Of a DNA stretch of 10,572 nt, positions 6,402-7,322 are shown in pieces. The translations under genes were made by a program, and so were the position numbers. How positions within the stretch are numbered: position 1 is the first letter of the stretch; each line of letters starts with the position of its first letter. The stretch lies in contig DPMO01000045.1 of the NCBI GenBank assembly GCA_003541445.1, positions 1-10,572 of the forward strand, read 5' to 3'. Under the pieces are notes generated by a model, which saw only the letters and a list, made by a program, of their open reading frames with translations, ran no database searches and was not told the origin of the DNA. Origin of the DNA: Clostridiales bacterium. GTDB taxonomy: Bacteria; Bacillota; Sulfobacillia; UBA995; UBA9673.

Positions 6402-7322
6402 TCAGGTCACCATGCCCGAGAGAACGAAGATGATGGCGAAGACGAAAAGGGTCAGGGCCTCCATGAACACCAGGGCCAGCATCATCGATGTCCGGATGTC
6501 TCCCGCCGCCTCGGGCTGGCGCCAGGTCGCCTCCATGGCCGCCACGCCCGTCCGGCCCTGGGAGAGGGCCGACCCGAGCGCGGCGACGGCCATGGCGGCG
6601 ACGGCGGCCGCGCCGAAGAGGTTGGCCGCCGGCGTCGTCGCCCGCCCGTTGAGGACGAAGACGATGGCGAACACGAACAAGGTCAGGGCCTCCATGAACA
6701 CCAGGGCCAGCATCATGGATGTGCGGGTGTGGCCCGCGGCGGCCGGCTGCTTCCAGGTCGCCTGCATGGCCGCCTGCGTGGTCCGCCCCTGCGCCACGGC
6801 GGAGCCGATGGCCGCCAGGGCCATGGCCGCTACGGCGGCCGAGCCGAACAGGACACGGGAGCTGTCGACCGAGCCCGTGAGGACGAAGACGATGGCGAAC
6901 ACGAAAAGGGTCAGGGCCTCCATGAACACCAGCCCGAGCATCATGGAGGTCCGGGTGTCGCCGCTCTCCTCCGGCTCGCGCCAGGAGGACTCCATGGCCG
7001 CCACGGCGGCGCGGCCCTGACTGAGGGCGGACCCGAGGGCGGCCGCGGCCATCGAGACCACGGCCACGGCGGTGAAGACGGCTATGTCCGGGGTCACCCT
7101 GCCCGCCAGGACGAAGACGATGGCGAAGACGAAAAGGGTCAGGGCCTCCATGAACACCAAGGCCAGCATCATCGTCGTCCGGACCTTGGCGGCCGACTCG
7201 GGCTTCTTGCGGATGGACTCCATCGCCGCGGCGCCGGTCCGGCCCTGGGCGTAGGCCGAGCCGAAGGCGGCGAGAGCCATGGCCAGGACCGCGGCTCCAG
7301 AGAAGATCACCATTGGCGACAT
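6402..7322 (-). CDS. atpE: ATP synthase Fo subunit c, four fused hairpins
   Basis: A 306-residue membrane protein made of four tandem c-subunit hairpins, eight transmembrane helices in all, against about 75-90 residues and two helices in the usual F-type c. Each unit has a small-residue first helix ending in a Q-G-R turn (Q26, Q102, Q178, Q255), a polar loop with a K/R-x-P motif, and a second helix with FMEALTLFVFAI. The ion-binding glutamates are E59, E135, E211 and E288, spaced 76, 76 and 77 residues, so all four hairpins should carry an ion. Aligned to the Ilyobacter Na+ site, the Gln and Glu are kept, but Ser66 is Ala and Tyr70 is Phe; this resembles the chloroplast H+ type. Linkers are short (about 8-10 residues) and differ between units. 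The start ATG at 7322 has GGGGGAG six nt upstream. The frame is open throughout and sits exactly where atpE belongs, between atpB and atpF. Confidence 0.95.
   Translation of the reverse strand: MSPMVIFSGAAVLAMALAAFGSAYAQGRTGAAAMESIRKKPESAAKVRTTMMLALVFMEALTLFVFAIVFVLAGRVTPDIAVFTAVAVVSMAAAALGSALSQGRAAVAAMESSWREPEESGDTRTSMMLGLVFMEALTLFVFAIVFVLTGSVDSSRVLFGSAAVAAMALAAIGSAVAQGRTTQAAMQATWKQPAAAGHTRTSMMLALVFMEALTLFVFAIVFVLNGRATTPAANLFGAAAVAAMAVAALGSALSQGRTGVAAMEATWRQPEAAGDIRTSMMLALVFMEALTLFVFAIIFVLSGMVT
6412..7322 (-). repeat. Four-copy tandem repeat of 228-231 bp within atpE
   Basis: Each copy encodes one c hairpin. A 23-nt block coding for VFMEALT around the glutamate is identical in all four copies, at 6450-6472, 6681-6703, 6909-6931 and 7137-7159 (spacings 231, 228, 228). 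About 40 more bases around each block are nearly identical, while the linkers and the first-helix starts have diverged. The divergence argues against an assembly artefact that duplicated one unit. Confidence 0.92.

What the first reader, a model, noticed from the sequence alone, without database searches (positions are those of the whole stretch)
6402..7322. Four-hairpin fused c subunit in a standard bacterial F-type operon
The sequence shows one 306-residue frame with four complete c hairpins, each with its own glutamate, in the normal atpE slot. Established knowledge: multi-hairpin c subunits occur in archaeal A-type enzymes (two, three or more hairpins), in V-type enzymes (with some carboxylates lost), and in some Na+ ATP synthases such as Acetobacterium woodii. 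Four hairpins with every carboxylate kept in an F-type operon is, to my knowledge, uncommon. If no free c is encoded elsewhere, the ring must contain a multiple of four hairpins (for example 8, 12 or 16), which would constrain the H+/ATP ratio.
Basis: partly seen in the sequence, partly recalled or inferred. Interest (0 to 1): 0.8.

Follow-up and report, generated by a model that had tools for sequence, protein, structure and literature searches.

The report
Four-in-one ATP synthase rotor subunit
Some uncultured bacteria appear to build the rotating ring of their ATP synthase from a protein in which four copies of the usual small building block are fused and have become different from one another, which would fix the ring size, and so the proton cost of each ATP, in steps of four.

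Summary
The 306-residue frame at 6402-7322 (-) is real: four complete c hairpins, each with its own Glu (59, 135, 211, 288) and Gln, in the slot between atpB and atpF. It is no assembly slip: 11 protein clusters (79-87% identity to the window's) have the same four hairpins, and four genome assemblies carry it between native atpB and atpF (G065's copy cut by a contig end). Hairpins sort by position across species, so the fusion is old. Units 1 and 2 carry cytoplasmic loops of opposite charge (+2/+3; -1 to -4; 11 of 11 each); 50 of 50 single-hairpin relatives have -1 or 0. No single-hairpin c was found in five of five four-hairpin genomes (completeness unknown). A second four-hairpin c (G066) probably arose independently; G063 has a further fused c between atpF and atpH.

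Bases 1-4011 match a different organism (G001) without a base difference apart from three N; the c4 side is G062-like. The join lies inside atpA.

Most likely function: an H+-type F rotor made of c4 chains alone; 12 hairpins is the most plausible size (inferred, untested). New variant of a known kind.

The parts
6402..7322 (-). fused four-hairpin F-type c subunit (c4), 306 aa plus stop
7095..7322 (-). hairpin unit 1 (residues 1-76), Gln26, Glu59, loop KKP, loop net charge +3
   Evidence: unit limits set by me within the linkers
6867..7094 (-). hairpin unit 2 (residues 77-152), Gln102, Glu135, loop REP, loop net charge -3
6639..6866 (-). hairpin unit 3 (residues 153-228), Gln178, Glu211, loop KQP, loop net charge +2
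6405..6638 (-). hairpin unit 4 (residues 229-306), Gln255, Glu288, loop RQP, loop net charge -1
7345..8079 (-). atpB, subunit a (244 aa)
   Evidence: PF00119; TIGR01131 125.1 bits over cut-off 102.6
5846..6352 (-). atpF, subunit b (168 aa)
   Evidence: PF00430
5273..5827 (-). atpH, subunit delta (184 aa); 18 nt from atpF, so no second c gene here
   Evidence: PF00213; coordinates
3761..5269 (-). atpA, subunit alpha, chimeric: 4012-5269 of G062 type, 3761-3985 of G001 type, 3986-4011 common to both
1..4011 (.). stretch equal to G001:C7 (three N in G001 aside), carrying atpG, atpD, atpC and the end of atpA; not from the c4 organism

Best explanation
This is the only c subunit of an H+-type F1Fo ATP synthase in an uncultured Bacillota lineage. 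Four c hairpins were fused by tandem duplication in an ancestor (shown by the tree). Several c4 chains close into the rotor ring, and each of the four Glu/Gln sites carries a proton past subunit a (sites and selection shown; carriage and ring closure inferred). As each chain brings four sites, the ring should hold 8, 12 or 16; twelve, three chains and 4 H+ per ATP, is the most plausible because it lies inside the known range and fits the three-fold symmetry of F1 (inferred; not part of the confidence given). Once fused, the hairpins no longer had to be alike: units 1 and 2 gained cytoplasmic loops of opposite charge, so the ring face toward gamma/epsilon is patterned with period four (pattern shown, purpose inferred).
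For: Four PF00137 stretches; F-type c models over cut-off (NF005608 163.8 over 128; TIGR01260 84.1 over 43.95), V-type K models far under (45.4 and 30.5 against 127). Site residues invariant in 12 of 12. Gene order a-c-b-delta-alpha-gamma-beta on single native contigs in L109, L034 and the distant L112. No single-hairpin c in five of five four-hairpin genomes, while the same search finds one in five of five single-c relatives. Units sort by position over 11 orthologs. Between three species each unit has pN 0.04-0.14 against pS 0.35-0.55. Loop charges of u1 and u2 lie outside the range of 50 of 50 single-hairpin relatives. Confident eight-helix model. Nearest solved relatives by sequence are Spirulina and chloroplast H+ c chains. 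An engineered single-chain c10 ring makes ATP (PMC8809890, passages).
Against: No protein, activity or ring has been seen. MAG completeness is not told, so a missed free c is possible. G063 has a second fused c, so a mixed ring exists as an option in the family. Three-hairpin P0013 looks like c4 minus one unit, either a collapse in assembly or a real variant. Second-c loops are also shifted to positive (0 to +3), so charged loops are not peculiar to c4. The loop measure was chosen after seeing the window's protein.
Confidence: 0.82

Rival explanations
1. The fused gene is an artefact of assembling tandem repeats.
For: The window itself is a chimeric contig, and repeats of this kind break assemblies: G065's copy is cut and G066's holds a run of N.
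Against: The same four units in the same order in 11 clusters that differ by 13-21% in sequence from the window's, intact on contigs of 72 kb (L032) and 28 kb (L034).
Confidence: 0.02
2. c4 is an extra rotor part that mixes with ordinary single-hairpin c chains encoded elsewhere, as in the A. woodii ring (that composition recalled).
For: Mixed rings are known from A. woodii; MAG completeness is unknown; G063 shows that second c genes occur.
Against: No single-hairpin c in five of five four-hairpin genomes; c4 occupies the only c slot in the operons of G062, G064, G065 and G066.
Confidence: 0.08
3. The chain is cut between hairpins after insertion, so the ring is of ordinary single-hairpin units.
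For: Not excluded by sequence; linkers of 12-13 residues lie between the hairpins.
Against: Unit differentiation kept in fixed order over 11 orthologs would be odd for interchangeable pieces; no processing signal was looked for.
Confidence: 0.04
4. About the window rather than c4: the atpA join is a true recombination, so a c4 organism really has G001-type gamma, beta and epsilon.
For: The alpha frame stays open across the join and scores 830.9 bits with TIGR00962.
Against: No base difference over 4.0 kb to one genome, 96% to another beyond, 26 common nt at the join, and both genomes run on natively past it: the look of a mis-join.
Confidence: 0.08

Closest known systems
Ordinary bacterial F-type c subunit (atpE; PF00137, TIGR01260)
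   Same: Sequence models, carboxylate and Gln per hairpin, position between atpB and atpF.
   Different: Four fused hairpins instead of one; units no longer alike.
Acetobacterium woodii F-type Na+ c-ring, two-hairpin chain (PDB 4bem_J)
   Different: Two hairpins with a lost carboxylate and mixed with single-hairpin chains (recalled); Na+ (PMC7793690, passage). Here four hairpins, all sites kept, H+-type.
A/V-type K subunits with two, three or 13 hairpins (Methanocaldococcus, Methanopyrus)
   Same: Fused hairpins; M. kandleri keeps every site (PMC2359735, passages).
   Different: Those serve A/V-type enzymes; here F-type models and F-type operon, V-type K models under cut-off.
Engineered single-chain c10 ring of Bacillus PS3
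   Same: Fused F-type c hairpins that make ATP (PMC8809890, passages).
   Different: Man-made, copies of one unit; here natural, with diverged units.

Membership tests
F-type ATP synthase c subunit | scores over curated F-type c models | tested here: met
   NF005608 163.8 (cut-off 128), TIGR01260 84.1 (43.95)
F-type ATP synthase c subunit | membrane carboxylate in helix 2 with helix-1 Gln | tested here: met
   all four units, 12 of 12 proteins
F-type ATP synthase c subunit | encoded among F-type a, b, delta, alpha, gamma, beta genes | tested here: met
   native contigs L109, L034, L112; epsilon not tested there
F-type ATP synthase c subunit | one hairpin of about 8-9 kDa per chain | tested here: not met
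   four hairpins, 306 aa; definition from PMC8106487 passage
F-type ATP synthase c subunit | closes into a ring and couples ion flow to rotation | not testable with these tools
A/V-type K subunit | scores over V-type K models | tested here: not met
   NF005124 45.4 and NF005174 30.5 against 127
A/V-type K subunit | A/V-type operon partners | tested here: not met
   neighbours are F-type a, b, delta, alpha, gamma, beta
A. woodii type F/V hybrid ring | single-hairpin c chains encoded beside the fused one | tested here: not met
   none found in five of five four-hairpin genomes; completeness of these assemblies unknown
A. woodii type F/V hybrid ring | Na+ site with Ser/Thr after the Glu | tested here: not met
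   Ala after each Glu in 12 of 12; rule from PMC2359735 and PMC7793690 passages

The most novel reading that the evidence does not exclude
The rotor is exactly three c4 chains, twelve hairpins: a natural F-type motor whose ring shares the three-fold symmetry of F1, one chain per ATP and a whole-number 4 H+/ATP, with a period-four charge pattern that gives gamma/epsilon three equivalent docking positions; and four-hairpin fusion arose at least twice (G062 group and G066).
Probability: 0.3. Interest if true: 0.82.

Novelty: new variant of a known kind. Interest (0 to 1): 0.62.

Why it matters
In reviews read in passages, each F-type c chain is one hairpin and rings from 8 to 17 are known except 16 (PMC8106487), and the mismatch between the ring and three-fold F1 is described for the enzyme in general (PMC9244403, passage). 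A natural four-hairpin chain would set ring size in steps of four, so 8, 12 or 16 would each be informative. It is also a natural rotor with addressable hairpins, in which single sites can be changed in a fixed order, something done so far with engineered fusions. Single c, two- and three-hairpin second genes, four-hairpin c and a probable second origin lie within one bacterial class, so the evolution of fused rotors can be traced there.

Tried and rejected
Assembly artefact and recent duplication: see rivals. Single origin of all fused c: the hairpins alone do not reject it (AU p 0.258); the flanking subunits do, weakly (p 0.020 for six subunits, 0.036 for a+b). One gain with a loss in L041/L042 and homogenisation in G066 remains possible. 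Unit 4 as a clade: unresolved in the free tree, not rejected when forced.

Gene conversion: mean synonymous difference in the helix-2 core between units of one gene is 0.28 (window), 0.21 (L109), 0.28 (L033) and 0.49 (L034), against 0.47-0.58 in the rest of the unit; orthologous cores of L109, L033 and L034 differ by 0.28-0.46. A hint of conversion, not shown; few sites.

Ring size from the model: led nowhere.

Wider occurrence: class of G062, 5 of 151 genomes with four or more PF00137 hits, 7 of 151 with none. Phylum sample: 276 of 398 genomes with any match; the row list was cut, and in the rows shown no match but G062's is longer than about 145 codons. Plasmids: no match. No paper on a natural F-type c of four hairpins was noticed in the listings (open-access library; eight papers opened, in passages only; PMC4228694 on A. 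woodii is not held).

Rows dropped: searches used 80 of 118 hairpins; left out were eight hairpins of the fragment proteins P0012, P0014, P0015, one false frame hit (L038_s1) and 29 of 50 single-hairpin relatives. One search used a wrong atpD for L033 (an alpha hit); one search repeats it mended. One search sliced units three residues off because a gapped row was read; one search repeats it, and only one search's unit values are cited. The promoter scan of 5200-8900 found no promoter-like site.

Full report
What is there. On the minus strand the window carries a murA-like frame (named from its sequence, not tested), an AtpZ-like gene (PF09527), a small frame in the atpI position without a family match, atpB, the frame in question, atpF, atpH, atpA, atpG, atpD and atpC. 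The frame at 6402-7322 starts with ATG behind a purine-rich stretch (by eye), has 306 residues and four PF00137 stretches; its DNA repeats four times with spacings 231/228/228. AlphaFold2 predicts eight helices in four hairpins, pLDDT 90.7, pTM 0.88. All four Glu, all four helix-1 Gln and the Thr three residues after each Glu are invariant in 12 of 12 four-hairpin proteins aligned.

It is real and rare. A search of about 5.8 billion proteins gave 18 hits, the window's own included: 11 clusters of 303-306 aa with four hairpins (the other ten 79-87% identical to the window's), a distant four-hairpin protein (P0016, 58%), three fragments (P0012, P0014, P0015) and three proteins with three hairpins (P0013, P0017, P0018). 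Searches with P0018 and P0016 added only two two-hairpin proteins, P0019 and P0020. Each search scored only the roughly 8,000 candidates sharing most words, so these are lower bounds. In the collection of 84,980 species genomes, 56 loci were returned: L032 to L035 carry this c4 (L035 cut by a contig end, its last unit being L037), L036 the distant one, and the 50 others (L038-L087) a single-hairpin c. In the class of G062, 5 of 151 genomes have four or more PF00137 hits. In a phylum sample, 276 of 398 genomes match; in the rows shown, only G062's match is longer than about 145 codons.

The window is a chimera. Bases 1-4011 agree with G001:C7 except at three bases that are N there; from 3986 on the window follows G062 (96% over 6.65 kb); the 26 nt 3986-4011 are common to both. 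Beyond the join G001 runs on with two b-like genes, a delta-like gene and its own alpha start (frames read by eye); it holds no c4 DNA, and its one PF00137 hit lies on another contig with 27% identity to c4. G062 runs on with its own alpha end, gamma and beta. A mis-join of two organisms at a conserved stretch of atpA is the simplest reading; true recombination is not excluded. So the window's c4, atpB, atpF and atpH belong together, and its atpG, atpD and atpC probably do not belong with them. The c4 claim does not suffer: a-c4-b-delta-alpha-gamma-beta stands on one contig in L109 (the contig of L032; its c4 differs from the window's at one residue) and in L034, and over two contigs in G063 and G065.

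No free c found. PF00137 gives four hits, all inside the fused gene, in G062, G064 and G066; in G065 the four hits are the fused gene on two contigs; in G063 there are six, four in c4 and two in a second fused gene. The same search finds exactly one c in each of five single-c relatives, G067-G071. The completeness of these assemblies is not told, which leaves a doubt.

History of the fusion. In a tree of 80 hairpins (69 columns; 14 of 76 inner branches firmly supported) the units of 11 orthologs sort by position (u1 99/99, u2 97/95, u3 93/49, u4 unresolved), so an ancestor already had four distinct units. Single-hairpin L038, L041 and L042 stand just outside. The four units of P0016 form their own group (100/90) beside single-hairpin L044 and L040 (99/81). 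The hairpins alone do not reject one origin (p 0.258). The flanking subunits place G066 outside a group of L041/L042 (single c) and the c4 clade (100/98) and reject one c4 clade at p 0.020 (six subunits) and 0.036 (a+b). Two origins are the better reading, not a proven one.

The units are kept and no longer alike. Between L109, L033 and L034 each unit has pN 0.04-0.14 against pS 0.35-0.55. The loop tip, mostly RQP in single-hairpin c, is KKP in u1 (10 of 11), REP in u2 (9 of 11; one QEP, one out of register through a one-residue deletion), KQP in u3 (10 of 11) and RQP in u4 (10 of 11); P0016 has RQP four times. Loop net charge is -1 or 0 in 50 of 50 single-hairpin relatives; +2 or +3 in u1 (11 of 11), -1 to -4 in u2 (11 of 11), 0 to +2 in u3, -2 to 0 in u4; 1, 0, 0, 0 in P0016; 0 to +3 in the second-c proteins P0017-P0020. 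The measure was chosen after seeing the window's protein and the orthologs are related, so the permutation count is no probability; that u1 and u2 lie outside the range of all 50 relatives does not rest on it. The loop is where c meets gamma and epsilon (PMC8106487, passage).

How it most likely works. The site looks H+-type: Gln and Glu, but Ala after each Glu where Na+ sites have Ser/Thr (PMC2359735 and PMC7793690 passages), and the best solved relatives by sequence are Spirulina and chloroplast c chains. A ring of c4 chains alone would have 8, 12 or 16 sites; known F rings run from 8 to 17 without 16 (PMC8106487). Twelve gives 4 H+ per ATP and no symmetry mismatch with F1. An engineered single-chain c10 ring makes ATP (PMC8809890, passages). 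Shown: gene, sites, selection, loop pattern. Inferred: ring closure, size, coupling and the purpose of the pattern.

Relation to the known. By models, neighbours and carboxylates it is an F-type c subunit; the defining feature it fails is one hairpin per chain. It fails the tests made for A/V-type K. Fused c chains are known from A/V-type enzymes and, with two hairpins, from the A. woodii F-type Na+ ring, whose chain 4bem_J is the best Foldseek match and the best non-designed match in the second look. Hence a new variant of a known kind. That no earlier report was noticed rests on ten searches of an open-access library and is no proof of absence from print.

Noticed in passing
window 3986-4011: Join of two organisms inside atpA: 1-4011 equals G001 apart from three N there, 3986 onward follows G062.
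   Followed up: yes
L033:7218-7679: Second fused c gene (153 aa, two hairpins) between atpF and atpH, beside a c4 in the same operon; relatives have two (P0019, P0020) or three hairpins (P0017, P0018).
   Followed up: partly
P0013 (230 aa): Looks like c4 without unit 3; a collapse in assembly or a real three-hairpin variant.
   Followed up: no
genomes G072, G073, G075: Same order as G062, yet only frames of about 190 aa with two PF00137 hits, perhaps A/V-type K, and no c4; G074 has no PF00137 hit.
   Followed up: no
genomes G062-G066: COX1 (PF00115) found in G066 (three matches) and in 0 of 4 of G062-G065: the two four-hairpin groups may differ in respiration.
   Followed up: no
L112:5800-7200 (G066): A run of about 100 N inside the c4 gene; by eye its edges abut when set against P0016, so the gap looks spurious.
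   Followed up: partly
L075: A contig labelled Acetobacteraceae carries an ATP synthase that falls among these Bacillota in the tree; perhaps a wrong bin or label.
   Followed up: no
window 8086-8493 (-): Frame of 135 aa in the atpI position without a Pfam or NCBIfam match.
   Followed up: no
window 504-974 (-): 156-aa protein downstream of atpC on the G001 side; matches repeat-protein models such as phycobilin lyase CpcE far under their cut-offs.
   Followed up: no
P0001: Pfam DUF7512 (PF24352) matches at 27.2 bits against a cut-off of 27, inside a c hairpin (residues 120-141); probably that model is catching c-like sequence.
   Followed up: no
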